Shown in pieces: positions 10,200 through 49,943 of a DNA stretch of 51,796 bases. Within the stretch, counting starts at the first letter, position 1. Each line of letters begins with the position of its first letter. The notes beneath the pieces were generated by a model. It made no database searches, was not told the origin of the DNA, and worked only from the letters and a program-made list of their open reading frames with translations. Both the position numbers and the translations under genes were made by a program. Source of the stretch: Gammaproteobacteria bacterium RIFCSPHIGHO2_12_FULL_37_14 (GTDB lineage Bacteria > Pseudomonadota > Gammaproteobacteria > DSM-16500); NCBI GenBank assembly GCA_001801485.1, contig MGXV01000073.1:1-51796 (forward strand), given 5' to 3'.

Positions 10200-10895
10200 T
10201 TAATTGATGCACGCTTGATATTTTGTTTGATCTGCAATCATTGCATCTAAAAATCCTTTTTTACGAAGAAAGCAGCTATCGCATTCACCACAGGCTTCTC
10301 CATCAGTATTTGCTTTATAACATGAAACAGTAAATGAATAGTCAATGTTGAGTTCATGCCCAGCTTGAATAATTTCAGCTTTACTCAGTTTAATCAAAGG
10401 GGCTTCGATTTTAATTTGCTGACCTTCTACACCTACTTTTGTCGCCAAATTGGCAAGATTTTGAAATGCAGCTATATACTCTGGTCTGCAGTCCGGATAT
10501 CCAGAATAATCAACTGCAGTAACGCCTATGAAGATTGCTTCTGCCTCCAATATTTCTGCCCAACCTAATGCAATTGATAAAAACACCGTATTTCTAGCTG
10601 GAACATAAGTTACTGGAATTTCATTTGAAGACATATAATTTGGGACGTCGATTGATTTATCTGTTAGTGCTGATCCTCCCAGAGAGCCAATAGATAAAGA
10701 AACAATTTCATGTCTTTCAGCATGAAATTTTCTCGCAATGTTTCTTGCAGCTTCTAGTTCTGCGCGATGTTTTTGACCATAATCGAAGCTTAGTGCGTAG
10801 CAAGAATAACCTTGATTTTTCGCTATCGCCAAACATGTTGTTGAATCTAATCCGCCTGACAATAATACAACTGCTTTTTTCATATATTTACCCAT
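10200..10895 (-). CDS. queC: 7-cyano-7-deazaguanine synthase QueC
   Basis: QueC converts 7-carboxy-7-deazaguanine to preQ0 with ATP and ammonia, in the route to queuosine in tRNA and to 7-deazaguanine DNA marks. The PP-loop motif SGGLDSTT is at the N-terminus, followed by [29 protein letters not shown] and the zinc-binding cysteines of [18 protein letters not shown]. Length is normal. The ATG at 10895 overlaps the stop of the transporter gene (TAATG); the second Met at 10883 (MKKAVVLLS) matches the usual family start. No queD, queE or queF is in the window. Confidence 0.95.
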
Positions 10896-11629
10896 TATTT
10901 ATATTTATTATTTTCTGAACTATAAGATGCTTCTAAACTCACAGGATTGAAATTTGTATCGTAATCATAAATATCAAGTTTCTCGCTTTTTTTGAGAAAC
11001 TTTGCTAACCGAATTGAAAACGGTAATCCTAAAATTTCAATAACAGTTTTGGTTACCCATATATCAAAAATTATTTTCATAATATCGTGCATTGAATAGA
11101 TTTTGCAAAAAGCAATCGATGCGAATACAACACTGTCTATGGCTGATGCAGCAATTGTTGATGATACAAATCGAATTCCAATATACTTACCTTTATGTTT
11201 ATTTTTTAATTTAGCTAATATAAATGAATTCATTGGTTCAGAAATAATGTAGCTTGAAAATGATCCTAGAATAATAAATATATTTGCAGCTATTAATTTA
11301 TTAAAAACTGCATTATCAGTTGCAAAGCTTGGGTTGGGTAAATGTATTAGAATTTGCCCATATCCAACAAAAATCACATTAAACAAAAATGCAGACCAAA
11401 TCGCTCTTCTTGCGTGCTTATATCCATAAACTTCTGTGATCATATCTGACAATAGAAATGTTATTGGAAAAATCAAAGTCCCTGGCGAAATTACCATTTT
11501 AAATATTTCAATCAATCTGGCATCAAACCAATTTGATATCGCTATTATCATCGAATAAGAAAGTATCAAAAACCATAAATACTTCGGGTGGTTTTCTATA
11601 ATGGATGATTTAGAGGAACTTTTAGTCAC
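10895..11629 (-). CDS. yhhQ: queuosine precursor transporter (YhhQ/DUF165 family)
   Basis: A 244-residue membrane protein with about six hydrophobic segments and family motifs such as [23 protein letters not shown] and, later, [19 protein letters not shown]. YhhQ-type proteins import preQ0/preQ1. Coupling to queC by an overlapping stop-start strengthens the call: one gene imports the precursor the other makes. It has a charged C-terminal tail ([20 protein letters not shown]). A second, broken copy lies at 42747-43452. Confidence 0.9.
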
Positions 11630-28297: not shown

Positions 28298-29866
28298 ATG
28301 ATGGTAAATGGACCGCTTGAAATATATGGTACTGTAATCGGTATAAAATTGTTCGATGCACTTTTTAATATTTTAGCGTCGATGGGCGTTATTTTTATAC
28401 CACTGCTTATTCTGATTTTTGAAAACATTACAAAACCATATGAATCAGAAATTGAAAATGGTGCTGCAACATCACTGCGGCGTGTACTTATTCATTTCTT
28501 TTTGTGGGTATTTACGGTGATGTTATTTGTAGCGCCAACCTGGAGTTTAGATGCAACTGCGATTACGTACAAACCAGTTTGTAGCGCTTCCGCTGTTACT
28601 TCCACATTTGGAGACACAGGAACCACTTACGATAATGCATTTGAAAATTTAGATTATTCTGATTTAAGAATCCCAATCATGATGGGATTTGTGCTTGATG
28701 GCATGTCTGGATTTACGAATGCTGCAATCACATCTCTGCCTTGTAAAACAGATGTTGAGCAAATGCAAAATACGATTGATACAACGCGTTTAACGCCTAA
28801 ATTATCCGATCAAATATCTCGCTTTCAAAATGAGTGTTTTGCACCTGCTAAAGCACAGTTTGACAATCAAACACCGGATAAATCCGAGTATAAAAGTGAG
28901 ATGAAAGAATACGGTGGTACAACTGATTTATCATGGATTGGCTCGCATGTATTTCAAACGCTCTATTACGGGCAAATTTACCCAACCAAGCCTGTGCCTG
29001 ATTTTCCTGCTAACTCATTCCCAGGACAGTATCAGGCATATAACGAGCAGCAAGGCGTTGCGCCATCACAATGGGGATACCCTGATTGTGAAACGTGGTG
29101 GACTGATTCACAGGATGGGTTGCAAGCAAAATTAGTAAATTTGGCAAGCAAGCATGATCCGCAAAATCCGCACTTGGGCAATGTGCCATTAACGGACGAA
29201 GTCTCTGCTTATCTTGCCAACGTAAAACGTTTTACACACATGGGATCACAAGTCACCTCGGATGATGTGATATCTCATGACATGCTGTATGACGTTGGCA
29301 GTAACTCGGGTTTTGGTCGTGACTATACTGGATGGATGAAAGATGAAGACACCCCGATTGGCATGGAAAATAGCGGCGCACAACGTGTTGCAGCTAATGT
29401 TGCAGCCAATGTCGGTCAAGCAGTTGATGCTGCGATGTCAGTTGTTAAGCGTGCTGAAATCGCGCAAGAAATACCTATTTTACAAGCTGTTTTAATTTCA
29501 TTGGGATTAGCATTAGGTCCGATGATTATTATTGTCGGCATGATGACGGGTCGATCCATCAGTGTAATTTTTACCTATTATTTTTTAATCGGCAGCCTGT
29601 TGTTTATGACCTTTATTGAAAAATTTATTCATTATCTTGAGCTATCCCTTCATGCCAGTCAAAACAACGGTATTTATGCGATGGGAAATAATTTGGTGAT
29701 GTATAACGTTTTTACAAAATTATATTTCTATGCGCCGATGTTGTATCTCATGTTGATGTCGATTGCGGGGGTTGGGCTGGGGAATTCTATCGGAAAAGCA
29801 TTTTCCGATAGTAGTTCCGGCAGTTTAAATGGCCTAGCAGACAAAGCAATTGGAAAATTACTTTAA
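28298..29866 (+). CDS. traG: conjugation protein TraG (N-terminal domain family)
   Basis: 522 residues with membrane spans at the N-terminus (DALFNILASMGVIFIPLLILIF, LIHFFLWVFTVMLFVAPTW) and near the C-terminus (ILQAVLISLGLALGPMIIIVG, SVIFTYYFLIGSLLFM, MLYLMLMSIAGVGLGNSIGK). Several Cys residues in the middle (PVCSAS, LPCKTD, NECFAP, YPDCETWW) are typical. This is the short GI-type form without the long C-terminal entry-exclusion domain of F TraG. It has roles in pilus assembly and mating-pair stabilisation. Confidence 0.85.
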   Translation: MMVNGPLEIYGTVIGIKLFDALFNILASMGVIFIPLLILIFENITKPYESEIENGAATSLRRVLIHFFLWVFTVMLFVAPTWSLDATAITYKPVCSASAVTSTFGDTGTTYDNAFENLDYSDLRIPIMMGFVLDGMSGFTNAAITSLPCKTDVEQMQNTIDTTRLTPKLSDQISRFQNECFAPAKAQFDNQTPDKSEYKSEMKEYGGTTDLSWIGSHVFQTLYYGQIYPTKPVPDFPANSFPGQYQAYNEQQGVAPSQWGYPDCETWWTDSQDGLQAKLVNLASKHDPQNPHLGNVPLTDEVSAYLANVKRFTHMGSQVTSDDVISHDMLYDVGSNSGFGRDYTGWMKDEDTPIGMENSGAQRVAANVAANVGQAVDAAMSVVKRAEIAQEIPILQAVLISLGLALGPMIIIVGMMTGRSISVIFTYYFLIGSLLFMTFIEKFIHYLELSLHASQNNGIYAMGNNLVMYNVFTKLYFYAPMLYLMLMSIAGVGLGNSIGKAFSDSSSGSLNGLADKAIGKLL

Positions 29867-30083
29867 AGGTGAAACAAACATATGTGCAAAATATTCAATT
29901 TTCAGTATCGCCATGAATCGGGCACGCAAGAATCAATTCTATCGGACGTACTTTCTTTTTTTAAACTGAAAATAAAGCATCCGAGGATAAAACACAGATA
30001 TAAGGCATAGAAAAAATAAAATAAAACAAACTTTGTAACCTTAAATGCTGTTATAAAAATTTTTTTAGACATGAGCTTCTCGA
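29867..30083. other. gap in the conjugation operon with two overlapping small frames
   Basis: This is the only sizeable gap in the operon before 33872. The plus strand has a 42-codon frame (29882-30010, MCKIFNFQYRHESG, AAAGGTG upstream). The minus strand has a 56-codon frame (30072 down to 29902, MSKKIFITAFKVTK) with one strong hydrophobic helix (FVLFYFFYALYLCFILGCFI) and a poor AGAAG site. Either could be real, not likely both. I annotate neither as a gene. Confidence 0.4.
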
Positions 30084-30443
30084 ATGAAAGAAAACGATAA
30101 AAAAAATAGCAATCAGCACGATTTTAAATATCGTCTGTTATCCATAACAGTTATATTTTCAATAGTGCTGATTCTATTTTTTATCACAATCAATATTTCA
30201 GATTTCGCTGGCATTCATCATCTGATTTTTGATCTTAATGATTTTATTAAAAATCATCAGCTTGCTTTTTTATTGTGGCATATTTTGATCATTATCACAA
30301 TTTATGCGGGATGGGGATTTAAAGTTAACAAAGATGCCAAAAAATTTAATCTATCAAATGCACAAACAAAAAAAGCAAAGCAATTTCGGTATTGGATGAT
30401 CGCATTTATTGTGATTTTTGATTTATTAACGCACTTATATTGA
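30084..30443 (+). CDS. small three-span membrane protein in the conjugation operon
   Basis: 119 residues with hydrophobic spans at about 20-40 (ITVIFSIVLILFFITINIS), 60-78 (LAFLLWHILIIITIYAGWG) and 103-117 (YWMIAFIVIFDLLTHL). It lies ten bases before traD. I do not recognise the family; it may be a membrane partner of the coupling protein. Confidence 0.6.
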   Translation: MKENDKKNSNQHDFKYRLLSITVIFSIVLILFFITINISDFAGIHHLIFDLNDFIKNHQLAFLLWHILIIITIYAGWGFKVNKDAKKFNLSNAQTKKAKQFRYWMIAFIVIFDLLTHLY

Positions 30444-30453
30444 GAGAAAGGCA

Positions 30454-32454
30454 ATGAGATCAAAGCATGCATTTGAAAATTACTTAAGAACACCTTATGA
30501 ATTTTTAATCTCACTATGTGCTTTTACTTTCTCGATTATTTTTTTGATTAATTGGAACTTTTTAGTGCTTGATGAGCACTTTTCAAAAGCCATTGCACTG
30601 GCATTTTTTGTCTTTGGCATTATTCGCGCTTATCAAGGCATGCAAATTTTTCTGTTTAAAAAAAGGTTGCTGGTATTAAAGCCATTTTCAATGCAAACAA
30701 CTGATGTCCCTCTTTCTAAAAAATATTTATATATCGGCAGGGGCTTTAAATGGCTTCCAATGCATCGTCAGCGATTAAATTTATTATCTTTGGCGCAAAA
30801 TCAGCGCTTTCTGCAAAAAAGTTTTGCCTATCGATTTATGCAGCAACGTGAACGTGAAAATCAAAACGGTATTGCATCGATGCTTTGCAAAATACCATTT
30901 TCACCATTTAAAGCATTGCCTGATATAGGTGGAAAGCCTTGGATACATGGCGTTGGATCAAAGTCTGAGCGAGCAGTTTTTTTAAATCAATCCAATCGTA
31001 ATGCACACGAATGCATTTTTGGCATGACGCGTGTTGGTAAAACACGTTATTTATCCATTAAAGTCAATCAAGATATTAGAAATGGTGAATCCATTTTAGT
31101 GATCGATCCTAAAGGCGATTTTGAAGTAATACAAGATATGTATTGTGCGGCAAAAGCCGCTGGCAGATTAGATGATTTCATTATTTCGCATTTTGGATTT
31201 CCTGACATTTGCGCTAGATACAATCCGCTCTCATCATTTACAAATGTGAGCGAGGTTGCAAGTCGTGTAACCAGTGCTATTTCTCAAACAGGAGAAGGGA
31301 AGGTTTTTAAAGATTTTGCCTGGCAATATGTAAACGTGGTCGCAAAATGTCTGCATGAATTATTTGAGCCTATCAACTACAAAACAATCTCGTTTTATAT
31401 CAAGCGACCCGAGATTTTACTTAGTTTATATGTCGATAAAATATTTCCAGAAATTGAGCCTGATTTTTTAGATAAAGTTCAGGAAATAATTGACGAAAAT
31501 GATAGTCGCATTGATCGTCAAGGTAATCCGCTTGAACCCTTGGCGAGATCAGTTGCCATTAAACGTTATTTAGAGGGTTATATTGAATCGCATATTGGTA
31601 AAGATTTCGAAAAATTATTGGATAGCATTATCGTACCGCTTTATAACGCCGCCACATTGGATAAAACCTATTACGATAAAATTACTGCTAGTATCGGTCC
31701 AGTGCTTGATAAAATCAATCAAACCTCTGCGCAAGGCGTTTTCTCATTTGACGATAATCAAGAATTACCTATCATTCATTTGGAAAATATCATCGCTAAA
31801 AAGCAAATTGTGTATATCGGACTTGATTCACTTACCAATCAAGATATGGCAGAAGCCGTTGGGCAAGCCATCATTGCTGATTTGGTATCACTCTGCGGCA
31901 GAATTTATACGCGAGGCGGCGCCAATCAAAGCTCGCTGTGCCTTCACTGCGATGAATTTAGCAATATTGTGCGTGATGAATTCGTCAACCTATTAAATAA
32001 AGCCGGTGGTGCGGGCATTAAAGTATCAGCTTACACACAAACAATTAATGATCTGGGTGCTGCTTTTAGTGGAAATGCCGATAAAGCAAAAATGCTCATG
32101 GGAAATTTTGGAACATTGACCATGTTGCGTGTTAGTAATGAGGATACTGCCTCATTATTTACCAAATGTGTTGAGCAAATAAAAACGCGATCCAAAGTGC
32201 CATTTACCATGTCAAATGATAAATCGGAAAGTCAAAATGGTGAGCTTTTTACAACCAACAACTCAGACCAAATATCAGAAGAAAAAGTCAGTATTGTTGA
32301 GGTTAATGATTTGTTTTCCCTCCCAAAAGGGCAGGCGTTTGTGATGACCAATGGTGGTGAGATTTACAAGATACGCATTCCACTTCCCAAAAACGATGGC
32401 AGTGCACCAACATCATTTGAATCTATTTTAAGACAGGTGAACAAATGCGAATAA
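30454..32454 (+). CDS. traD: type IV coupling protein TraD (TIGR03743, SXT/TOL type)
   Basis: The 666-residue ATPase recruits the relaxase-DNA complex to the conjugation channel. Two N-terminal spans (FLISLCAFTFSIIFLINW, AIALAFFVFGIIRAY) anchor it. Walker A GMTRVGKT is at 190-197, the strand ILVIDPKGDFEV follows, and Walker B LCLHCDEF comes later. The segment ARYNPLSSFTNVSEVASRV matches the SXT-type family. It overlaps the Dsb-like gene by ten bases. No relaxase gene is found nearby. Confidence 0.92.
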   Translation: MRSKHAFENYLRTPYEFLISLCAFTFSIIFLINWNFLVLDEHFSKAIALAFFVFGIIRAYQGMQIFLFKKRLLVLKPFSMQTTDVPLSKKYLYIGRGFKWLPMHRQRLNLLSLAQNQRFLQKSFAYRFMQQRERENQNGIASMLCKIPFSPFKALPDIGGKPWIHGVGSKSERAVFLNQSNRNAHECIFGMTRVGKTRYLSIKVNQDIRNGESILVIDPKGDFEVIQDMYCAAKAAGRLDDFIISHFGFPDICARYNPLSSFTNVSEVASRVTSAISQTGEGKVFKDFAWQYVNVVAKCLHELFEPINYKTISFYIKRPEILLSLYVDKIFPEIEPDFLDKVQEIIDENDSRIDRQGNPLEPLARSVAIKRYLEGYIESHIGKDFEKLLDSIIVPLYNAATLDKTYYDKITASIGPVLDKINQTSAQGVFSFDDNQELPIIHLENIIAKKQIVYIGLDSLTNQDMAEAVGQAIIADLVSLCGRIYTRGGANQSSLCLHCDEFSNIVRDEFVNLLNKAGGAGIKVSAYTQTINDLGAAFSGNADKAKMLMGNFGTLTMLRVSNEDTASLFTKCVEQIKTRSKVPFTMSNDKSESQNGELFTTNNSDQISEEKVSIVEVNDLFSLPKGQAFVMTNGGEIYKIRIPLPKNDGSAPTSFESILRQVNKCE

Positions 32455-33005
32455 TTTTATTGTTTATTTTTCTCGGTATTTCAGTAAATGCTTTTTCTGC
32501 CGTTATTGAAGGCAATCCAACTGGAAAAGTCACGATGATCGAGATATTCGACTATCAATGCATTTATTGTCACAACGCCTATCCAAAAGTATTAAAACTC
32601 ATGGATAAAAACCCTGACTTAAAGATACGACTTATGCCAGTTGCGATTTTAAATCAATTATCGTTGTATGAAGCGGCTGCGGCAATTACTGCTGCACGTT
32701 ATCCGAGTAAATTTCAGGAATATACGGATATGGCAATGATGGCAAATCCATTAAATAAAAATGAGATCACAACAGATTTAAACAATTTGCATTTGAATTC
32801 ACCTGATTTTAAAAAACAAATGCATTCGCAAGACGTTGAAAATCAATTAATGCAAGGATTGCAATTTTTACGCCTTGAAAAGGCAAGCACGCCTTTATTT
32901 ATCATATACCCAAGCAATAATCCTAAAATATCGGCTGTTTTGAAAGGCGATCAGAGGCTGTCAACGCTGCAAAAAGCAATCAGTGAAGCAGGAGAGAGCG
33001 CATGA
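32445..33005 (+). CDS. periplasmic thiol-disulfide protein, DsbA/DsbC-like
   Basis: 186 residues with a signal peptide (LLFIFLGISVNAFS), then IEIFDYQCIYCHNAYPKVLK with a CIYC redox motif and a cis-proline block ASTPLFIIYP, i.e. a DsbA-type thioredoxin fold. It probably forms or isomerises disulfides in the Cys-rich TraU-, TraH- and TraG-like proteins of the same operon. Confidence 0.88.
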   Translation: MRIILLFIFLGISVNAFSAVIEGNPTGKVTMIEIFDYQCIYCHNAYPKVLKLMDKNPDLKIRLMPVAILNQLSLYEAAAAITAARYPSKFQEYTDMAMMANPLNKNEITTDLNNLHLNSPDFKKQMHSQDVENQLMQGLQFLRLEKASTPLFIIYPSNNPKISAVLKGDQRLSTLQKAISEAGESA

Positions 33006-33520
33006 AACAGATTTTTATGTTTATACCCAAAAGCAATAAAACACTTTGGATTTTTAAATCTAAAATTAATGATAAGACACGCATAAGCATTTGTCTTAAA
33101 AAATTGGATAAATTACATAGTATTGTTAGAGATTATGATTCATTCGAAGCATTTGGATTAGGGTATTTTCAAGCACAGATTTCACAATCAATATTGTTTT
33201 TTAAACGTGAAAGCGATCGCATGAAAAAGCTCATCAAAGCCAAAACAAAATCGGATGTAACTTATGTCGGTGATTGTGGCGTGCAATATGATCTATCCAT
33301 TAACAGCACATTATCAACATCATTTTATGAATTACTACAATTATTTGATGATTTGATGTGTCTTTCAAAAACCTGTTTTGATTTAAAGATATTTGAAGAA
33401 AAAAAACTAATGTACGGAAAAATTGAGCATTATAAAAAATGTATCAAGATGATTATTCATAATGTTTGTCAATATAAAATATCAACTAACACAAAAACAA
33501 AAGAGGTTGCGCATGTTTAA
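33002..33520 (+). CDS. hypothetical conjugation-operon protein
   Basis: 172 residues, basic and helical, with no signal peptide. The part DVTYVGDCGVQYDLSINSTL and the following helices vaguely recall the TIGR03761/DUF1845 (AcaB-like) proteins of conjugative elements, but I am not sure. It overlaps the Dsb-like gene by four bases (ATGA) and the Sel1-like gene by eight. Confidence 0.5.
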   Translation: MKQIFMFIPKSNKTLWIFKSKINDKTRISICLKKLDKLHSIVRDYDSFEAFGLGYFQAQISQSILFFKRESDRMKKLIKAKTKSDVTYVGDCGVQYDLSINSTLSTSFYELLQLFDDLMCLSKTCFDLKIFEEKKLMYGKIEHYKKCIKMIIHNVCQYKISTNTKTKEVAHV

Positions 33521-33872
33521 GAAAATTGTAAAAAATATTTCAAAAAATATGGAACATAAGGCAAATAAAAAAGAGTATTTTTTAGCAAGCCGATATGCCG
33601 AATTGGGTAATAAAACCTGGCAGTTTTTGCTGGCAAAAATGTATGAGACTGGAACGACAGTTGTGACAAAAGACATACTTACTGCTTATGTCTGGTATTA
33701 TTTTTCGAATCAAAATGGAATGAAAGAGGCCGAAGAACGATTGATGTTATTAAAATCGCAATTATCAAATGAACAATTGAATGAAGCAAACGATATCATT
33801 TCAAGAAACATGCATTATGTTAACCAAAAAACAAAAAACTTATTAGTTATGATGAAGCGCTTATTTTGTTAA
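33513..33872 (+). CDS. short Sel1-like repeat protein
   Basis: 119 residues containing YFLASRYAELGNKTWQFLLA and MYETGTTVVTKDILTAYVWY, which read as two Sel1-like helical hairpins (the AA..G...Aq..La.mYe.G..v..d...A..W pattern). Such proteins are adaptors for protein contacts. The ATG at 33513 has GAGG seven bases before it and overlaps the previous stop. It is the last gene of the long operon. A fragment of a similar protein is at 36949-37176. Confidence 0.7.
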   Translation: MFKKIVKNISKNMEHKANKKEYFLASRYAELGNKTWQFLLAKMYETGTTVVTKDILTAYVWYYFSNQNGMKEAEERLMLLKSQLSNEQLNEANDIISRNMHYVNQKTKNLLVMMKRLFC

Positions 33873-33900
33873 AAACACTGGTTTTTAAGTGAATTTTTGA

Positions 33901-33906
33901 TATAAT
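33901..33906 (+). promoter_or_regulatory. promoter -10 element ahead of the ribozyme
   Basis: TATAAT, an exact sigma-70 -10 consensus, lies 29 bases after the Sel1-like stop. The predicted start at about 33913 is only six bases before ribozyme helix I, so the ribozyme would be the 5' end of the transcript. The -35 region (around 33878-33883) is weak. Confidence 0.55.
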
Positions 33907-33918
33907 AGGCTGTTATAA

Positions 33919-33984
33919 AAGTAGTACTGATGAGCGTCTGAAATGACGCGAAACGCAATCAAGTCATTGATGCGTCTATTACTT
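33919..33984 (+). ncRNA. hammerhead ribozyme (type I, helix I open)
   Basis: All core bases are present and in order. Helix I is AAGTAGTA (33919-33926) paired with TATTACTT (33977-33984), with one G-T wobble. The core CTGATGA is at 33927-33933. Helix II is GCGTC (33934-33938) and GACGC (33945-33949) with loop TGAAAT. GAAA is at 33950-33953. Helix III is ACGCAATCAA paired with TTGATGCGT (33953-33975), with one bulged A and a GTCA loop. The GUC cleavage triplet is 33974-33976, so self-cleavage is predicted between 33976 and 33977. A possible outer extension pairs 33908-33913 with 33994-33999. Confidence 0.88.
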
Positions 33985-34256
33985 AAATCACGCACAGTCC
34001 AATGCTTCGTGAACCTAACGAAAGTTAGCCTGACTCCTGAAAATTCCATTCAAATAAACTGAATTATTGTTTTTTTAAAAAACAGTGGCTGTGAATGGCG
34101 TTTTCATCAATTTAATTTGTTTTAAAATTTAACATCTATTTTTGATGTTTTCGTTCTTTAAAAATTTAGCTTGTGCGTCTTAAGTTATCTTAGCATGCCT
34201 ATTGGGGAAATTTGATTTTCCCTGATGGGTAAATCTTATTTTTCTTTTGGGTTTTA
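33985..34256 (+). other. non-coding stretch after the ribozyme
   Basis: No gene is seen. It carries a stable small hairpin CTAAC-GAAA-GTTAG (about 34016-34029) with a GNRA loop, a T7 tract near 34070, distant CCATTCA/TGAATGG arms around it, and an AACATC/GATGTT hairpin followed by T-rich sequence. It then grades into the leader of the next gene, which contains a GGGAAA...TTTTCCC-type hairpin near 34204-34222. It may be the cleaved, stable 3' product of the ribozyme transcript or a long 5' leader. Confidence 0.45.
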
Positions 34257-34276
34257 TTAACTAAAAAGGAGAAATA
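34257..34276 (+). promoter_or_regulatory. duplicated leader element, copy 1
   Basis: TTAACTAAAAAGGAGAAATA, holding a strong AGGAG ribosome site, precedes the GTG start by two bases. Almost the same element (one mismatch) precedes the next gene at 34772-34791, and both have GGGA/TCCC-type hairpins upstream. The shared leader suggests common post-transcriptional control of the two genes. Confidence 0.65.
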
Positions 34277-34278
34277 AG

Positions 34279-34692
34279 GTGAGTGCTTATATACTGGATA
34301 AAAAATCATTTGATGCTTTAGTATATGCTGCTACAGATGGATATTGTGATAGATATACACCAAAGCGAAAATTTGTTTTTGCTCATCGCAATATTAGAGT
34401 CGAATTGACAGAAAATGAACTTGGGCAACTTCTTGTCGATCAAAATTATGAGTCTTTTAATTATCGTTATAGTAAGTCTCAAAAACCTTATCTATACAAA
34501 TATGAATATGATTCTGTTTTTGAAACGTTTAAACCAGTTGATTTTTTTAAACTATGCGATTGTTATGAGTATCAAAGTTGTGAAACAAATGAGTATGCTA
34601 ATTCAGTTGCGGATCGCGCAATTTTTTCATTACGAAAGCAATTGATACGCGCATTGCCTGGTTATGAAGATGCGGCGTGGGGTCTTTGTTAA
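34279..34692 (+). CDS. conserved hypothetical protein with YEYQSCE motif
   Basis: 137 residues with a GTG start behind a strong ribosome site. I recall a widespread uncharacterised plasmid/phage family with a central CYEYQSCE motif and a C-terminal ALPGYEDAAW motif, both seen here (near 95-102 and 127-136). Its function is unknown. It precedes a second small accessory gene that has the same leader. Confidence 0.7.
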   Translation: MSAYILDKKSFDALVYAATDGYCDRYTPKRKFVFAHRNIRVELTENELGQLLVDQNYESFNYRYSKSQKPYLYKYEYDSVFETFKPVDFFKLCDCYEYQSCETNEYANSVADRAIFSLRKQLIRALPGYEDAAWGLC

Positions 34693-34771
34693 ATTTGTGA
34701 GTTGTTTTTCTAACCCAATAAGGGAATTGGATATCCCTCTTGCGGGAATTTCTTTTTCCCCTTTTATTTTT

Positions 34772-34791
34772 TTAACTAAACAGGAGAAATA
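34772..34791 (+). promoter_or_regulatory. duplicated leader element, copy 2
   Basis: TTAACTAAACAGGAGAAATA lies three bases before the ATG of the next gene. Upstream are two small hairpins (GGGAATTGGATATCCC region at 34722-34737 and GGGAA/TTCCC at 34744-34760), mirroring the arrangement of copy 1. Confidence 0.65.
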
Positions 34792-34794
34792 GTA

Positions 34795-35193
34795 ATGCGG
34801 ACTATAAATGAACAAATCTACGAAAAATTAATTCGACTGATACCAGACTTGTTGAATATGGAATCTGGTGATTACATGAAAAGCATATCGAAAGGATATA
34901 TGGATTTAAGCCTGGATATGTTGAGTAGTAATGATGACCAAATCATTATTGCGTTAGCTCATAATTACGTTTCAAACGGTGATATCGTTCCTGATCCTGA
35001 TATGGAGATTCGCATATTTAAAAATAGTAAATCTGCGGAAGCATTAACATATCAAGATATTCGGACATATGATTGTGTTTATGATGATGAAAATAATGCT
35101 GACCAAAAACTTCAGAATAGTTTGAATTCATTTTTAAACACATGGCTTAAAAACTGTATAGGTCAACAGCATAAATTGATTCGTACAAGCTAA
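34795..35193 (+). CDS. hypothetical protein, DUF6908/DUF1249-like
   Basis: 132 residues. The middle part AHNYVSNGDIVPDPDMEIRI followed by AEALTYQDIRTYDCVY recalls small uncharacterised families (DUF1249, DUF6908) found on plasmids and phages. No catalytic motif is seen. A strong terminator follows the stop directly, so the transcript ends here. Confidence 0.6.
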   Translation: MRTINEQIYEKLIRLIPDLLNMESGDYMKSISKGYMDLSLDMLSSNDDQIIIALAHNYVSNGDIVPDPDMEIRIFKNSKSAEALTYQDIRTYDCVYDDENNADQKLQNSLNSFLNTWLKNCIGQQHKLIRTS

Positions 35194-35197
35194 ATAA

Positions 35198-35224
35198 AAA
35201 AAGGCGGAGTTTATCCGCCTTTTT
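35198..35224. terminator. bidirectional intrinsic terminator
   Basis: AAAAAGGCGGA and TCCGCCTTTTT form an 11-bp stem with a five-base loop, with A-tract and T-tract on the two sides. It serves the rightward gene ending at 35193 and the leftward gene ending at 35239. Confidence 0.92.
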
Positions 35225-35238
35225 ATAAATTTTTTTAA

Positions 35239-35448
35239 TTACTGTTTGATTGACCGAGCAAATAGCTTTTTAAAGTGTGGCGAAACGAATACTCTAAATG
35301 AAAAAAATCCTGCCCAATAAAGCAAACATGTTAAAAACAAAAGATCTGAATTTCCACCAATAAATTGACGACCAAATATTGCAAATAAACATCCGGTTAA
35401 AAATAGCCCCTCTGGCTTCAAAAAGTAGCAAAATATTTTTTCTATCAT
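35239..35448 (-). CDS. small membrane protein
   Basis: 69 residues starting MIEKIFCYFLKPEGLFLTGC with two hydrophobic spans (GLFLTGCLFAIFG, LLFLTCLLYWAGFFSFRVFV) and a basic tail. The ATG at 35448 has GGAG eight bases upstream; a longer frame from 35478 lacks one. Its function is unknown. It is transcribed divergently from the toxin-antitoxin operon. Confidence 0.6.
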   Translation of the reverse strand: MIEKIFCYFLKPEGLFLTGCLFAIFGRQFIGGNSDLLFLTCLLYWAGFFSFRVFVSPHFKKLFARSIKQ

Positions 35449-35603: not shown

Positions 35604-35885
35604 ATGAGATGCTCTGTTGATATTACAGAAGATGCTACGGAGGACTTGAAGAAGGTTCCAGTCCATATTGCATCAAAGCTCGAGTACTGGGTAAATGCAG
35701 TTGAAAAATATGGGATCGAGGTTGTCAGAAAGGTCCGTGGTTATCATGATGAGTCATTAAAAGGCGACAGGAAAGGGCAGCGATCTATTCGATTAAATAG
35801 AGCCTATAGAGCAATTTATGTTGAAACAAAAACACACGAAGTTAGATTAATCTCAATTGTAGAGGTAAACAAACATGACTATTAA
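35604..35885 (+). CDS. higB: HigB-like toxin (RelE/ParE superfamily)
   Basis: 93 residues with the RelE fold pattern: an N-terminal helix region TEDATEDLKKVPVHIASKLE, then GYHDESLKGDRKGQRSIRLN, RAYRAIYVE and a final VRLISIVEVNKHDY, the typical HigB-type end. HigB toxins cleave mRNA on the ribosome. The ATG has AGGGGA upstream. The toxin-first order and an 11-base overlap with the antitoxin gene fit HigBA. Confidence 0.87.
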   Translation: MRCSVDITEDATEDLKKVPVHIASKLEYWVNAVEKYGIEVVRKVRGYHDESLKGDRKGQRSIRLNRAYRAIYVETKTHEVRLISIVEVNKHDY

Positions 35886-36180
35886 AGCGGCTTTAGCGCT
35901 ACAAAAGATTACCAAGAAAAAATTAACACTCGGTGGTTTGCTTTGGTCAATTCGCATGTGCGATGAAAAAAGTCAAACTGCATTTGCGAAGGAATTAGAT
36001 GTTTCCAGTCAATATCTGTGTGATGTTGAAAATGGTCGGCGAACAGTGAGTCCATCTGCTGCGAAAAAATTCGCTGAAAAATTAGGGTATTTACCAGAAC
36101 AATTTGTTGAGCTTGCTATTCAAGATATGCTTGACCATGAAAAGATAAAAATGAAAGTACATATCGAGAAGGCGGCGTAA
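35875..36180 (+). CDS. higA: HigA-like antitoxin (XRE family)
   Basis: 101 residues with a helix-turn-helix (SQTAFAKELDVSSQYLCDVE, NGRRTVSPSAAKKFAEKLGY). It neutralises the upstream toxin and should bind the TTGGGGT repeats. Its stop overlaps the start of a third gene (TAATG). Confidence 0.87.
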   Translation: MTIKAALALQKITKKKLTLGGLLWSIRMCDEKSQTAFAKELDVSSQYLCDVENGRRTVSPSAAKKFAEKLGYLPEQFVELAIQDMLDHEKIKMKVHIEKAA

Positions 36181-38039: not shown

Positions 38040-38090
38040 GTATTTAGCGTATATTTCCGTGATGTAAAAAACAGTACATTGTTTACCAAA

Positions 38091-38118
38091 AGATTTTGGC
38101 GACGCGTCGCCAAAATCT
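38091..38118. repeat. perfect 28-bp palindrome
   Basis: The sequence from 38091 (AGATTTTGGCGACG) is fully self-complementary, centred between 38104 and 38105. With no loop, it looks more like a dimeric protein binding or recombination site than an RNA hairpin. It ends 20 bases before the GTG start of the next gene, so it could also act as an operator. Confidence 0.85.
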
Positions 38119-38138
38119 ATTTAAATAAGGGTAATTCC

Positions 38139-42746: not shown

Positions 42747-43452
42747 TTAAGCACTTTTTATTGTAAATGGGTTGTAGTTATTCACAACCTCAAAATAATT
42801 TCCACCGTCAATTTGAATCAGACGTTTTTTAATGCCTGCGGCAAGAAAAGACGAAAACAAAGTAAACATTATTTTTATCGTTAACGATACCAGAATCATT
42901 TCAATAATCGCGTGCGCACCTGATATACCAATCTGAACCAGAGTCACGGTAACGCCAGTAAAAATAAGTTCCCCAAGCGCAGAAGATACGATGCTGCGTA
43001 GATAAAAAAATCGACCATTCAGTTTTATTTTCCATTTCACGAGAAAATAAGCATTAATAAACATCCCAAGAAGGATTCCAGCAAGATTAGAAAAATAAAT
43101 TCGCAGCATGCGGATCAAATATAAAGTGATAATGCTGTGTATATAACTGGTACTTTGAACTCACGGGAAGATGAACCAATCCATCAAGTAATAAACTTAA
43201 AATGAAAAGACAGGATAACATTTTCCAAATTGTGGCACGCATTGCTGAATAGCCATATAATTCACTGATAATATCTGAAATTGCGTACGTTATTGGAATT
43301 ACAAAAACAGAACCAACTGTCAAAACACCGGCAATATTTACAAAACGATATGAAAGCAAAAGCGAAGCGGACATAAACGTTAAATACAGCATGCTCAAAA
43401 AAACATAGCAGGTATTTTTGTGATCAACTTTCTGAGGATTAATAACCGCCAT
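42747..43452 (-). pseudogene. frameshifted queuosine precursor transporter (second yhhQ-like copy)
   Basis: The first part reads FVIPITYAISDIISELYGYS and onward to HAANLFF, then stops. The other frame continues SNLAGILLGMFINAYF and LGELIFTGVTVTLVQIGISG, which completes the DUF165 family. Joining the two at a run of five T (minus strand; A5 at 43091-43095) restores one protein, so a single-base indel broke the gene. It is a separate paralogue of the intact copy at 10895-11629, not a close duplicate. Confidence 0.82.
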
Positions 43453-43474
43453 CACTTTATTCGCCTTGTCATTA

Positions 43475-44002
43475 TTAGAGTTTAGATCGATAAGCAGTAT
43501 TGCTATTTTCATCATGTAAAATGAGCTTATCCATTTCAGATTTTTCTAAACGCATTTGCACTAAATCTTTTTTTTGTGTTGCGTCTAATGATTTATAAAA
43601 AGTACATGCTGACGTATTCCACGTAAAAACATGCCATTCCACCCGGCAACAAGAATTTTCATTTGCAATTTTTGCAAGCATTGACATTAGCTGTTTACCA
43701 GCACCTTCTTTTCGATAAGGTTCACGAACAAGTAAATCTTCCAAATATAAGATACGTGCGCCAATGGTAGCAGAATAAGTGAAAAAATATAATACATAAC
43801 CTATCGGTTGATTATTGTGTTCTGCAATCAATACATGAAAACGTGGCGTTTCTGAAAATGCATCAGCGATTATTTTTTCTGGCGTCAATTTCACACCAGA
43901 TAATTTCTTTTTTTCATAAATCGCTAACTCTTGAATTAAAGAAAATAACGATGCGGCATCATTTTTTGCGCCTGATCGAATAGTAAAATTTCTCACGAAC
44001 AC
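43475..44002 (-). CDS. GNAT acetyltransferase, diamine/SSAT-like
   Basis: 175 residues with the pattern of the spermidine/thialysine N-acetyltransferase group: LIQELAIYEKKKL, GYVLYFFTYSATIGARILYL, EDLLVREPYRKEGAGKQLM (acetyl-CoA binding) and WHVFTWNTSACTFYKSL. It probably acetylates a polyamine or an amino-group substrate. It runs in the same direction as the broken transporter gene downstream. Confidence 0.85.
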   Translation of the reverse strand: MFVRNFTIRSGAKNDAASLFSLIQELAIYEKKKLSGVKLTPEKIIADAFSETPRFHVLIAEHNNQPIGYVLYFFTYSATIGARILYLEDLLVREPYRKEGAGKQLMSMLAKIANENSCCRVEWHVFTWNTSACTFYKSLDATQKKDLVQMRLEKSEMDKLILHDENSNTAYRSKL

Positions 44003-46016: not shown

Positions 46017-49000
46017 ATGCGACCACAAGAAGAAAAAGAACAATCGCAGCAACAACCAGTTGCAGAAGAAACAGCAGAAATTTTCCACACTGCTGGCAAT
46101 GCAGCAAAGACTGTTGAAGCATACGCACTCAAAACCGCTAAAAATCACCTATTTCATGGCGCTGAAAAAGCAGAGGTTATATGTGAGGTTGCCACAGGAA
46201 TTTGTAAAAGCGTTGGCGCAGAAGACAAAACAAAAGTGGTCGTTAATACGGCTATGGATGTAACACTGGGTATTGTCGGTGGCGCTGCAGGAATAACCGT
46301 TGGCAGTGTCGCTGGACCACTCGGAAGTGCGGCTGGTTATTCTGTTGGTAGTTATGCTGCTGTTAAAGCCAATCACCTATTACGCGATATACTGGAAGAT
46401 ACTCCATTTGAATCTGACTACACGCCACTATCAATTCCAGATGATCAACAGTATTTGGATTCATTGATGCAAAATATTGCGCCAGATATGCCGCGAATCA
46501 ATAACTTTAGACGCACGTTAGATGCTGCGCTACATCAAGAAAGTCCTTCAAATATTCTTTTGGACAAAATGCAAAAGATGATGGCGGAACCAAACAATCT
46601 TTCATTATTAGCACTTGAAAAATTAAATACTGATTTACCAGAGGCAATGCAATCTGCTGCGATCACGTTAACACCACAACAACAAGAATCACTTTCGTCT
46701 CTTCATCAAGAAATACAGGTAATCGCTGCGGATATTCATCAGTTACAAGACAATGCAAAAAATAATGCGCAAGCATCAGCAACACTTCAAACAAACATAG
46801 ATTTAAAAATTGCACGCGCATCACAATTAATCACAGATTGTAAAAGAAAATTTGGCGTCATCCATCATGATCAAGACAAATTAACGCAAATGATGGAAGT
46901 AATATTTGATGCAAGTACGAAAGTCGATATCTCACGTGTGTCCGATATGACACACATACGTCAACTGGATAGTGAACTAAAAGAATTAAAAGCGCGTCAT
47001 CATAATGGCGAACTATTGATTGACGCCATTACGCAAAAATCACGTGAATTAGAGCATGAAGCAACCAAAGAATTATCAAAGCGAGTTGAATTTTCAGACG
47101 CTATTTATAGTGCATCGCAAACTGTTTCAAGTGCTGCGAAATTATTATTTTTATTTGGCGATGAAGAAACTAAAAAAGTCGCGCAAGATTTAGCAACGGT
47201 TGGATTATCAACATTGGATGCAATCGAACAAGGCGCGGCATTATTTGGCCACGGTCTTCTTGCTGCATCGGTTAACCCTGCTGTTGCAGTTGTTTCCATT
47301 GCTGAAGCGGTGATGAATATCAAAGGATTATTTAATAAACCCAAATCAACACCCCATCCAAATGAAGCTGTTCTTAAAGCGATTGGAAAATTATTTAATT
47401 TAATCGATCAGATGCGTCAAGAGATGCATCAAGAATTTAATGCGTTAAAAGAAAAAATAGACGCGCAGACGTGGCTGTTTTTAGAAAAATTTTACGCACT
47501 ACAAAAAACAAACAGTGATATTTTGATTGTATTAAATACGCTATATCACGATGTGCATGATGGTTTTGAAAAACAAGAAGAACGACTTTCTCATATCGCC
47601 AATCATTTATTGACACTCGATCAACAGATCAGCGCAACACCCTATCGAGAAGATGTAGAATATTTGAAAGAAGCGATTCATTTTATTATTCAAAATACGC
47701 TATTTACTGATTATAACGATCGCATTAATAAAATTGATTTTAGAGCGCGGGAAAATGGTATTCATCATCAATTAAAAACTGTCTTAGATTTGCAAGAAGG
47801 TTCAACAGGCGTTAATTATTTTCAGGTGAGTGCTTATCTGGCGCTGCAGCTACAATCACCACTCAAACAAAGTCCATTATTATTGCTCTATGGTGCTGTT
47901 GCCAATTTATTATTGGTGATGAAAAAACATCCCGTGCCCAATGCGGAATATGTGAGTCAACGCCTCACTACAAAAGATTTTGAAAGGCTCATCTCTTATC
48001 AACGCTCATTTGATCAAATTGCAGAATTGATTCAAAATGCACGAAATCCAGAGAAATTAAAACAATTTATTGATGCGTATCAAACTGCTGTTACGCAATT
48101 AATGCATGTAATCGATGGCGAAACAAAAAATTTCGAAGTGCGTTTTGTCAGCGATAAACGACGCGACAGAGAAGTCGCATCAACGCATCAACGCGCTCAA
48201 GAGTGGGATCGATTTAACCAGGAAATTAAAGTCCATACTGGAAAATGGTATACTGGAAATCACATGCACGAATCACGCAGCTATCCAGGATACTGGGTGT
48301 GGACAAACACCAACAAAGAATATACTGACACAGCCCAACTGCAAGCGTTTGTTTCCAGCGAAACGGAAAAACGACGAAGACAAAGAACTGATTTTCGAAT
48401 CACTTATGAAAATCGTTTAACGCAATCACAAACGGATCAATTATCTTTATTTGGCGCATCAAATCTAACGCCATTGCATCAAGGATTATTTTTTTCTCCT
48501 CTGGGATCCATGCATTTTCTGCCTCTGCCAATCCCCGATCCTTTATTTACTACGCATAGCACTGGTACAGCAGTAATGCGTATTTTAAAAGAAGCACAAA
48601 CATTGGGATTGGGTACACTTTTATTTTCCTATCAATTATTGGCAGAGTCAGACCATTATCACCAAGTTACTTATAGTGTTCAATTTGCACCAAATCATGC
48701 GCAACCAGAAACCATTCTTTCCATCGTTTTACCTTTCACATACAGACCGCATGGCATCGTCGAATCTGTTTGGAATGATTATATGGGTGGATTAATGCGG
48801 GTGAATGCTGAAGGTATTAAACAACCACCCAGACGCGTTGGAATAACAGGCGCACAAGCAATGGCTGGCAGTGGTAATGGTCATCGAAGCGGTTGTTTTG
48901 AGGCAGATGAATACACTCTGGTTACACCGCCACCGGAAGTTGATCAGCCTGGAAAAATAAAACAGTTTGACAATCCAACGTCACTGACAGTCTTCGAGCC

Positions 49001-49943
49001 CGCATTGGATCGCGTCAAAACAAAAATTGAAGAAGGCTATCATGCATTTAGAACACAATATCGAAAAACACTGGAAAAACAGTTAGATTTGACACAATCG
49101 GATGCGCTTGGAAATGCTGTGAAAGCGTTTGAGCAATCCTATCGACTATTGGAAGGTGTATTGACGTTAGCGTATTTTGATGACATGCAAAATCCCAATA
49201 GCCCGATCAGAAAAATTCTGTTTGATCATGCGATTAATTTAAAACAATTAAAATCACTGTCAGTTGAAACAAATCTTAAAGAAAGATTGCAGCACATTTC
49301 TCAAATATTGCCTGATATGTTTAAAAAACTATCGATGTTGTCAACGTCCGATTTTAATTTTAAATTATTTGAAGATGCACGCGCATCACTCAATCAATTA
49401 TTGCCTTTGTATCAACCCTATCTTGTTGATCACAGTCCAGATTTTCCAGAGCTAGATCAATCTGAAAAAATTATTCAGCTACAGACCAAAATTATTGTCG
49501 GCATTGTGAGTGGGATTTTATCTGAAATGCCTTCGCTAGCGGCGAATATTGAGCGTATTGTGCAAGACCAATTAAAAGATGTACCACCATTGATTGCTGA
49601 AGAAATCGCATTACGTGCTAACAACGAATTAAAGTTACAACATAAAGCGTTGCCGTTTGTCGTCGCGGTGCCGCAATTGATGGCAAGCAATGATGATGAA
49701 AAAGAAGCATTGGCAGATGAGTGCAATCCGATTTTTGATGAACTACCAAAAAATGAAGAGCAATTGTGCCAGGCTATTTTTGGAGAAAAACCGCAAAGAC
49801 TGCAGGCTCAATCTCTTTGTACACAAGCAACTAATGTTAATCCTCAATCTTTATTTGGAAGACTCTGCAGTTGGGTAGCGGGATCAACACAGTCACAAGG
49901 ATTATCGCAAAGTGATAGCGTTCATTCACGTGGGTTGATGTAG
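46017..49943 (+). CDS. giant protein of unknown function (1308 aa)
   Basis: No signal peptide. Visible parts: a Gln/Glu-rich start, a small-residue hydrophobic segment (about 80-118, GGAAGITVGSVAGPLGSAAG), coiled coil (about 225-360), a second hydrophobic segment (about 405-435, HGLLAASVNPAVAVVSIAEA), helices around 455-560, a region rich in Tyr/Trp near 745-790 (WYTGNHMHESRSYPGYWVWT) and a helical C-terminal third. This shape, soluble with internal membrane-active segments and long helices, is seen in pore-forming toxins and effectors, but I recognise no family. It pairs with the next gene, one base away. Confidence 0.65.
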   Translation: MRPQEEKEQSQQQPVAEETAEIFHTAGNAAKTVEAYALKTAKNHLFHGAEKAEVICEVATGICKSVGAEDKTKVVVNTAMDVTLGIVGGAAGITVGSVAGPLGSAAGYSVGSYAAVKANHLLRDILEDTPFESDYTPLSIPDDQQYLDSLMQNIAPDMPRINNFRRTLDAALHQESPSNILLDKMQKMMAEPNNLSLLALEKLNTDLPEAMQSAAITLTPQQQESLSSLHQEIQVIAADIHQLQDNAKNNAQASATLQTNIDLKIARASQLITDCKRKFGVIHHDQDKLTQMMEVIFDASTKVDISRVSDMTHIRQLDSELKELKARHHNGELLIDAITQKSRELEHEATKELSKRVEFSDAIYSASQTVSSAAKLLFLFGDEETKKVAQDLATVGLSTLDAIEQGAALFGHGLLAASVNPAVAVVSIAEAVMNIKGLFNKPKSTPHPNEAVLKAIGKLFNLIDQMRQEMHQEFNALKEKIDAQTWLFLEKFYALQKTNSDILIVLNTLYHDVHDGFEKQEERLSHIANHLLTLDQQISATPYREDVEYLKEAIHFIIQNTLFTDYNDRINKIDFRARENGIHHQLKTVLDLQEGSTGVNYFQVSAYLALQLQSPLKQSPLLLLYGAVANLLLVMKKHPVPNAEYVSQRLTTKDFERLISYQRSFDQIAELIQNARNPEKLKQFIDAYQTAVTQLMHVIDGETKNFEVRFVSDKRRDREVASTHQRAQEWDRFNQEIKVHTGKWYTGNHMHESRSYPGYWVWTNTNKEYTDTAQLQAFVSSETEKRRRQRTDFRITYENRLTQSQTDQLSLFGASNLTPLHQGLFFSPLGSMHFLPLPIPDPLFTTHSTGTAVMRILKEAQTLGLGTLLFSYQLLAESDHYHQVTYSVQFAPNHAQPETILSIVLPFTYRPHGIVESVWNDYMGGLMRVNAEGIKQPPRRVGITGAQAMAGSGNGHRSGCFEADEYTLVTPPPEVDQPGKIKQFDNPTSLTVFEPALDRVKTKIEEGYHAFRTQYRKTLEKQLDLTQSDALGNAVKAFEQSYRLLEGVLTLAYFDDMQNPNSPIRKILFDHAINLKQLKSLSVETNLKERLQHISQILPDMFKKLSMLSTSDFNFKLFEDARASLNQLLPLYQPYLVDHSPDFPELDQSEKIIQLQTKIIVGIVSGILSEMPSLAANIERIVQDQLKDVPPLIAEEIALRANNELKLQHKALPFVVAVPQLMASNDDEKEALADECNPIFDELPKNEEQLCQAIFGEKPQRLQAQSLCTQATNVNPQSLFGRLCSWVAGSTQSQGLSQSDSVHSRGLM

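What the first reader, a model, noticed from the sequence alone, without database searches (positions are those of the whole stretch)
33901..33984. Hammerhead ribozyme at the 5' end of a transcript in the conjugative plasmid
Every conserved hammerhead base is present (CTGATGA, GAAA, GTC cleavage triplet) with three matching helices. A TATAAT box places the predicted start six bases before helix I. Cleavage at 33976/33977 would trim the RNA to a 5'-hydroxyl end, changing stability of a downstream RNA or mRNA leader. Bacterial hammerheads are known but few have a defined role, and one between a conjugation operon and accessory genes is a good candidate for new biology.
Basis: partly seen in the sequence, partly recalled or inferred. 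Interest (0 to 1): 0.88.

Follow-up and report, generated by a model that had tools for sequence, protein, structure and literature searches.

The report
Hammerhead ribozyme heading a plasmid transcript
A conjugative plasmid carries a small RNA motif that should cut itself near the start of a transcript; the motif is a new member of a known ribozyme family, and Legionella plasmids show a similar arrangement, in one case ahead of a gene that helps a plasmid evade restriction in a new cell.

Summary
Window 33919-33984 is a complete type I hammerhead: core CUGAUGA...GAAA, three helices, GUC triplet, cleavage C33976/U33977. No type I hit arose in 400 shuffles of the window. Rfam's gathering cut-offs are not met (best 26.2 bits), but a covariance model of 84 viral-contig hammerheads, window left out, scores it 44.5 bits, E 4.8e-11.

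Six copies (window, L. adelaidensis plasmid x2, L. fallonii plasmid, one viral contig x2) covary in all three stems: 29 double-change cells.

The four plasmid copies have an extended -10-like element 7-14 nt upstream; random positions about 3%, viral copies 3 of 162. Viral copies mostly sit between genes.

The window's next two genes have related leaders. The same pattern occurs in the held L. adelaidensis stretch only before the two genes after its second hammerhead: a small ORF and ardA.

Best reading: a promoter-proximal ribozyme trims the mRNA of plasmid accessory genes, leaving a 5'-OH end. Cleavage is untested. Hammerhead-ardA in Legionella was reported in 2011: a new member of a known kind. 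It is not general: 0 of 20 other T4SS-flanking stretches.

The parts
33898..33906 (+). extended -10-like element TGATATAAT (candidate promoter; no good -35)
   Evidence: read; TG(N)1-2TANNNT ends 7-14 nt before the 6-bp stem I in 4 of 4 plasmid hammerheads, background 2.5-3.2% of random positions, 3 of 162 viral type I copies (pattern chosen after seeing the loci); not listed by the generic promoter scan
33919..33984 (+). type I hammerhead ribozyme (whole)
   Evidence: descriptor, MFE, R2 44.5 bits E 4.8e-11, 0 of 400 shuffles, covariation with 5 other copies
33919..33926 (+). helix I, 5' strand AAGUAGUA
   Evidence: all six modelled helix-I pairs show double changes among 6 sequences
33927..33933 (+). 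catalytic core CUGAUGA
33934..33949 (+). helix II GCGUC/GACGC, loop UGAAAU
33950..33953 (+). catalytic core GAAA
33954..33974 (+). helix III CGC(A)AUCAA/UUGAUGCG, one A bulged, loop GUCA
33976..33977 (+). predicted cleavage site C33976^U33977 (GUC triplet 33974-33976)
   Evidence: position from the hammerhead consensus; cleavage not tested
33977..33984 (+). helix I, 3' strand UAUUACUU; would become the 5'-OH end
33985..34185 (+). structured untranslated stretch between ribozyme and leader (no RAGATH-32 match found in it)
   Evidence: 33977-34192 z -3.81, 0 of 200 shuffles; Rfam E-value scan of 33700-34800
34198..34278 (+). leader 1: hairpin CCUAUUGGGGAAA/UUUUCCCUGAUGGG, then a hairpin that pairs the Shine-Dalgarno AGGAG
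   Evidence: 34186-34284 z -6.80, 0 of 200 shuffles; leader pattern matches 2 places in the window, 2 in L001, 0 in 100 window shuffles
34279..34692 (+). first gene after the ribozyme, 137 aa, family MSAYIV...QSCE...LPGYE; relatives in 168 plasmid records
   Evidence: relative in an IncN plasmid near DUF932 and SSB genes; relative in viral contig L117 between two hammerheads
34714..34794 (+). leader 2, 71% alike leader 1 over 65 nt
   Evidence: its fold is not better than shuffles (z -0.94)
34795..35193 (+). second gene, DUF1249/DUF6908 protein
   Evidence: Pfam 4.7e-13 / 3.8e-20
35198..35224 (+). terminator-like hairpin after the second gene (listed on both strands)
30454..33872 (+). end of the conjugation operon upstream: TraD-like coupling protein, DsbA-like protein, two small ORFs
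   Evidence: Pfam; TraD-like 42.8% identical to L. adelaidensis TraD

Best explanation
The segment is a working type I hammerhead at the very 5' end of a plasmid transcript. RNA polymerase starts about 33912 from the extended -10 element, helix I forms at once, and the RNA cuts itself between C33976 and U33977, probably during transcription. This frees a roughly 65-nt 5' piece with a 2',3'-cyclic phosphate. The rest, a long structured leader followed by the 34279 gene and the DUF1249 gene, gains a 5'-hydroxyl end in place of a triphosphate. Such an end should bypass RppH/RNase E 5'-end-dependent decay (recalled general knowledge) and so prolong or even out expression of accessory genes of the kind carried near ardA, DUF932 and SSB genes on other plasmids; the first gene's Shine-Dalgarno is separately masked in its leader. 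Shown here: motif, fold, covariation, promoter-like element, related leaders, shared arrangement with a Legionella plasmid. Inferred: transcription start, cleavage, end chemistry, effect on mRNA life, role in establishment.
For: All core bases and three helices. 0 of 400 shuffles. R2 44.5 bits. Six copies: 97.7% of 86 cells paired, 13 of 15 pairs with double changes, 29 double-change cells, 0 of 500 shuffles as high on any of five measures. Extended -10-like element 7-14 nt before stem I in 4 of 4 plasmid copies (window, L001 x2, L287) against about 3% of random positions and 3 of 162 viral copies. The leader pattern occurs in the 42.7-kb L001 stretch only before the small ORF at 35047 and ardA at 35361, both after its second hammerhead, and in the window only before the two genes after its hammerhead; 0 of 100 window shuffles, mean 0.02 in L001 shuffles. 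A relative of the 34279 gene lies between two hammerheads in L117, and another viral relative, L092, has a type II descriptor hit about 0.75 kb upstream. Cleavage of comparable bacterial hammerheads, including those flanking ardA, was shown by others (PMC3088659, section 6 read).
Against: No cleavage, 5'-RACE or expression data. Helix I lacks an evident internal loop for a loop I-loop II contact, so the rate could be low; not testable here. No -35 for the promoter, and the -10 pattern was chosen after seeing the loci. In fold calculations of the full leader, helix I is displaced by downstream pairing (core-helix probability 0.80-0.96 with 3' ends up to 34180, 0.44 at 34186, 0.0 at 34290); shuffled downstream sequence also does this often (49 of 150 at <=0.1, 98 of 150 at <=0.5), so it is no specific switch, but late cleavage could fail. 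For the L. adelaidensis copy before ardA helix I is weak from the start (0.49, then 0.0). No close relative of the locus itself was found, so conservation of this very copy is unknown. No oriT or relaxase was identified, so 'leading region' is unproven. The leader likeness between window and L001 rests on a pattern I wrote from them; two of the four leaders do not fold better than shuffles. The window lacks the RAGATH-32 RNA of the Legionella loci.
Confidence: 0.6

Rival explanations
1. Operon processing: the ribozyme mainly cuts read-through RNA coming from the conjugation operon, separating tra mRNA (which gains a cyclic-phosphate 3' end) from the accessory mRNA, as proposed for phage hammerheads. 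The promoter-like element is incidental.
For: Same strand as the tra operon, 46 nt between the last stop and helix I, and no terminator-like site listed between them. Viral type I copies sit between genes: of 151 copies away from locus ends, 98 have a same-strand ORF ending within 150 nt upstream (median 1 nt) and 104 an ORF starting within 100 nt downstream (median 22 nt); near-identical contigs counted separately. Perreault et al. proposed processing of long phage transcripts (PMC3088659).
Against: The next gene starts 294 nt away, not about 22. The -10-like element is in 4 of 4 plasmid copies but only 3 of 162 viral copies. In L001 the gene before the first hammerhead is on the other strand (29040-30572 -), so tra read-through is not needed there.
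Confidence: 0.25
2. Regulated ribozyme: a ligand, protein or ongoing transcription or translation controls whether helix I or the competing downstream pairing forms, so that cleavage is a genetic switch for the downstream genes.
For: Helix I probability falls from 0.96 with a 3' end at 34180 to 0.13 at 34200 and 0.0 at 34290, through pairing of the 33981-33996 stretch with 34171-34186.
Against: Shuffled downstream sequence does the same in 49 of 150 cases, so the competition is not more than expected. L287 keeps helix I (0.89) over its whole leader.
Confidence: 0.08
3. A relic or a chance motif: a hammerhead-like sequence without activity.
For: Rfam gathering scores not reached; R1 did not report it; no activity test; displaced helix I in the long fold.
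Against: Intact core and three intact helices; 0 of 400 shuffles; R2 E 4.8e-11; covariation with relatives. A neutral relic would be expected to lose the core.
Confidence: 0.07

Closest known systems
Type I hammerhead ribozyme, bacterial and phage forms (Perreault et al. 2011, PMC3088659; section 6 and passages read)
   Same: Core, GUC triplet, open helix I, near mobile-element genes; a hammerhead-ardA arrangement in Legionella and A. tumefaciens is reported there.
   Different: Here beside a GI-type T4SS operon, behind a promoter-like element, 294 nt before a gene family that is not ardA; viral copies are mostly intercistronic.
Hammerhead + RAGATH-32 + RAGATH-13 module of Legionella plasmids (L001 30791-31150; L287 6320-6696)
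   Same: Promoter-like element, type I hammerhead, then structured RNA; in L001 it follows the same T4SS operon's traD.
   Different: No RAGATH-32 or RAGATH-13 match in the window; core position 7 is A or C in two of the three Legionella copies.
RAGATH-1 hammerhead (RF03152)
   Same: Window aligns to the whole model, including UAUAAAA six bases before CUGAUGAG.
   Different: 26.2 bits against a 56.3 cut-off; the model's upstream hairpin is shortened and one of its pairs is marked non-standard.
Leading-region (anti-defence) genes of conjugative plasmids (PMC11541004, passages read)
   Same: A relative of the 34279 gene lies among DUF932, SSB and TrfB genes on an IncN plasmid and near DUF932, a T4CP and a MobF relaxase in Paraburkholderia.
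   Different: No oriT or relaxase recognised in the window; that paper's main text holds no 'ribozyme' (0 occurrences), and the special control it describes is the ssDNA promoter Frpo.
CUP-type repeated upstream elements of IncN leading-region genes (recalled, not from a call)
   Same: Repeated leader before successive plasmid accessory genes, ardA among them.
   Different: Not compared by sequence here; likeness only.

Membership tests
Hammerhead ribozyme | Conserved core CUGANGA ... GAAA | tested here: met
   CUGAUGA 33927-33933, GAAA 33950-33953
Hammerhead ribozyme | Three helices meeting at the core | tested here: met
   MFE fold; covariation in all three helices across 6 copies, on an alignment fitted to R2
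Hammerhead ribozyme | NUH cleavage triplet | tested here: met
   GUC 33974-33976
Hammerhead ribozyme | Score over Rfam's curated cut-off (practical criterion, not a defining one) | tested here: not met
   0 matches at gathering; 26.2 against 48.5 bits for RF00008
Hammerhead ribozyme | Score under a covariance model of viral-contig type I copies | tested here: met
   R2 44.5 bits, E 4.8e-11; R1, from 3 sequences, did not report it at E<=1
Hammerhead ribozyme | Loop I-loop II tertiary contact | not testable with these tools
   loop II UGAAAU present; helix I has no evident internal loop
Hammerhead ribozyme | Mg2+-dependent self-cleavage | not testable with these tools
   needs in-vitro transcription
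Hammerhead ribozyme, type I | 5' and 3' ends in helix I | tested here: met
   helices II and III closed by loops, helix I open
RAGATH-1 hammerhead (RF03152) | Score over the family's cut-off | tested here: not met
   26.2 of 56.3 bits
RAGATH-32 (RF02922) downstream RNA | Match downstream of the hammerhead | tested here: not met
   none in 33700-34800 at E<=10
Leading-region establishment gene set | First region after oriT, transferred first | tested here: inconclusive
   relatives sit near DUF932, SSB or MobF genes; no relaxase family among the 39 distinct ORFs given to Pfam (of 66 of at least 80 aa); oriT not searched

The most novel reading that the evidence does not exclude
Plasmids of Legionella-like gammaproteobacteria use a standard expression cassette for establishment genes: a promoter, a 5'-terminal hammerhead that replaces the triphosphate by a 5'-OH, then related structured leaders on each gene. 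The cassette would make anti-defence mRNAs independent of RppH/RNase E end sensing in a newly entered host. That would be a defined role for bacterial hammerheads, which have lacked one.
Probability: 0.22. Interest if true: 0.75.

Novelty: new member of a known kind. Interest (0 to 1): 0.5.

Why it matters
Bacterial hammerheads are known but have no settled role. This copy, with three Legionella plasmid copies, places the ribozyme next to a promoter-like element and at the head of plasmid accessory or ardA transcripts, in contrast to the mostly intercistronic viral copies. That turns a vague question (what are bacterial hammerheads for?) into a concrete one: does a self-made 5'-OH end matter for expression of plasmid establishment genes?

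Tried and rejected
BLAST of 33500-34300 against plasmids gave no match; 33900-34060 against phages gave 7 records, E 0.5 or worse, none covering more than 23%. The gene before the ribozyme has 4 entries at E<=0.001 in the protein collection, the window's own included, and no relative in viral contigs, so conservation of this exact locus could not be tested.

Rfam Hammerhead_1 over 398 Pseudomonadota genomes: 0 over cut-off; 17 weak hits (E<=0.1), none with the three-stem descriptor under either core spelling. R2 over the same 398 genomes: 4 with a match at E<=0.001; the descriptor confirms 3 copies in 2 of them (G067 x2, G079), G001's match is a RAGATH-1 copy, G017's is not confirmed.

Is the ribozyme general to GI-type T4SS elements? 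No: 0 of 9 genome stretches downstream of TraD relatives and 0 of 8 shorter coupling-protein loci; 0 of 11 plasmid stretches of 11.6-20 kb downstream of TraC relatives (11 of the 103 records). Over 21 whole plasmid records R2 found 1 (L. fallonii), but with strict filters that also missed both L. adelaidensis copies seen, so that count is a lower bound.

Is it general to the 34279 gene family? No: of 80 viral-contig relatives searched (122 found, best 80 kept), R2 finds strong matches only in L117 (two copies) and weak partial ones in L075 and L076 (E 0.6-0.9); L092 has one type II descriptor hit. Of 4 plasmid carriers fetched (L049, L069, L070, L071) none has an R2 match.

My first descriptor (CTGATGA only) missed L117 and L. 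adelaidensis because core position 7 varies; it was relaxed to CTGANGA. It still does not list the second L. adelaidensis copy, which only R2 shows.

A switch between helix I and the distal UUAAGU looked attractive, but shuffled downstream sequence does it in 49 of 150 cases: rejected as specific. A CsrA gene like that of the L. adelaidensis element was looked for and not found in the window. A first MAFFT alignment of mixed hammerheads was misaligned and not used.

Full report
What is there. Window 33919-33984 (+) has every hammerhead core base, three helices and a GUC triplet, with the open end in helix I (type I). In 400 dinucleotide shuffles of the 51.8-kb window the type I descriptor never occurs. 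Rfam's curated models fall short of their cut-offs, and a first model from three copies of one viral contig did not report the window.

Covariance model. From 60 of these 120 loci, 84 matches to R1 (E<=1e-4) were aligned and made into model R2 without the window. R2 scores the window 44.5 bits, E 4.8e-11, and finds two more in a L. adelaidensis plasmid stretch at 35.9 and 29.0 bits; two further window places score 14.9 and 12.3 bits (E 0.3 and 2.1) and are taken as chance. The training set was selected with core letters the window shares; the helices were not selected.

Covariation. The six copies in the window, L001 (two), L287 (one) and L117 (two) pair in 97.7% of 86 cells; 13 of 15 pairs change on both sides at least once; slid controls pair in 18-49%. 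The alignment was fitted to R2's structure, which leans the count towards it.

Surroundings. The window holds RepA and ParA and a GI-type T4SS. Fifteen of 29 tested L. adelaidensis genes match it, in the same order, 25-50% identical, TraD-like 42.8%. After TraD-like come a DsbA-like and two small ORFs; helix I begins 46 nt after the last stop. The window shows no end overlap, so circularity is not shown. The next gene (34279-34692, GTG start) belongs to an unnamed family with relatives in 168 of 72,556 plasmid records, 128 of them typed conjugative. Its IncN relative sits among DUF932, SSB and TrfB genes; those in Paraburkholderia and P. paraeruginosa also have DUF932 on the same stretch; the Mycolicibacterium one has no such neighbour annotated. 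The second gene is DUF1249/DUF6908.

The Legionella parallel. In L. adelaidensis plasmid NZ_LR134418 a hammerhead (30791-30845) lies after traD and a divergent ORF, followed by RAGATH-32 and RAGATH-13 and then an integrase-like gene. A second (34787-34838) is followed by a weak RAGATH-32-like match (19.3 bits, below cut-off), a small ORF and ardA. L. fallonii plasmid III, which has no T4SS gene among its 11 annotated features, has hammerhead, RAGATH-32 and RAGATH-13 in the same order, and the genes after RAGATH-13 in the two plasmids are 40.7% identical over 263 residues. A third Legionella plasmid with ardA, L. israelensis, shows no hammerhead in the stretch held. A published paper reported hammerheads upstream of ardA in three Legionella strains (PMC3088659, section 6 read); I did not see which strains.

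Promoter-proximal position. TG(N)1-2TANNNT ends 14, 8, 7 and 8 nt before the 6-bp helix I in the four plasmid copies; random positions have it at 2.5-3.2%, and 3 of 162 viral type I copies have it. Viral copies instead mostly abut the preceding stop (median 1 nt among 98 of 151) or precede a start (median 22 nt among 104 of 151); 14 of 151 have neither; near-identical contigs are counted separately. The pattern was chosen after inspection, so the test is suggestive.

Leaders. 34212-34276 and 34727-34791 are 71% alike. The first leader folds far better than shuffles (z -6.80) and hides its Shine-Dalgarno; L001's ardA leader (z -3.44) also pairs its AGGAG; the window's second leader (z -0.94) and L001's other leader (z -1.77) are not clearly more stable than shuffles. 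A pattern written from these leaders matches 11 places in 2.41 Mb of held sequence; four are these leaders, and the other seven, two of them the same DNA held twice, look unrelated by eye.

Mechanism. The most likely working is self-cleavage soon after transcription starts, giving mRNA with a 5'-OH end. That such ends escape RppH and the 5'-end sensing of RNase E is recalled general knowledge, not from a call. Helix I is predicted stable until about 34180 is transcribed and then loses to downstream pairing; shuffled controls show this is commonplace, so only its practical consequence, that cutting should be early, is kept. In L287 helix I stays (0.89); in L001 it is lost at the full leader for both copies, and the copy before ardA is weak from the start.

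Breadth. The arrangement is uncommon: 0 of 9 genome and 0 of 11 plasmid T4SS-flanking stretches, 1 of 80 viral-contig relatives of the 34279 gene with strong matches, and 4 of 398 Pseudomonadota genomes with any R2 match (strict filters, lower bound).

Literature. Searches for hammerhead with RAGATH, integrative conjugative element, conjugative, all domains of life, ardA, conjugation, Legionella, and bacteriophage genomes listed no paper whose title or abstract start describes promoter-proximal hammerheads on conjugative plasmids. The library holds only open-licence papers, lists are capped, and apart from PMC3088659 (section 6 and passages), PMC10085705 (passages) and PMC11541004 (passages) I saw listings only.

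Verdict. A real, probably active type I hammerhead, a new member of a known kind, in an informative setting. The specific role is inference.

Noticed in passing
L001 30840-30949, L287 6368-6475: RAGATH-32's Rfam model starts at GUGGC; between hammerhead and model both Legionella plasmids have GCCAC/GCCAU able to pair with it, and UUCCC able to pair with GGGAA, which would make an H-type pseudoknot outside the curated model (read; not counted).
   Followed up: partly
   Followed up: partly
L117 3302-3357 and 4418-4472: Two hammerheads bracket a two-gene unit that includes a relative of the window's 34279 gene.
   Followed up: partly
L092 3184-3256 (+): Type II hammerhead descriptor hit about 0.75 kb upstream of a relative of the 34279 gene.
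   Followed up: no
L006 2231-2292 (-): Hammerhead at the start of an ORF with a ParA-like sequence (NRKGGVGKTE) in an uncultured bacterium's contig.
   Followed up: no
window 10200-11629 and 42747-43515: QueC and a Vut_1 transporter on the plasmid; a second Vut_1 appears as two overlapping ORFs, each covering about half of the profile.
   Followed up: no
window 35604-36180: RelE/StbE-like toxin with an HTH antitoxin-like neighbour.
   Followed up: no
window 46017-49943: 1308-aa ORF without any Pfam match at E<=0.001, near an OmpA-like and a SecDF-head-like gene.
   Followed up: no
window 38088-38121: 17-nt inverted repeat with no spacer (94% complementary) inside the AlbA_2/Schlafen ORF.
   Followed up: no
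G001 contig C110 (L025, L026): Two RAGATH-1 hammerheads over cut-off near the two ends of one 160.8-kb contig of a Rickettsiales MAG (71.6 and 69.7 bits).
   Followed up: no
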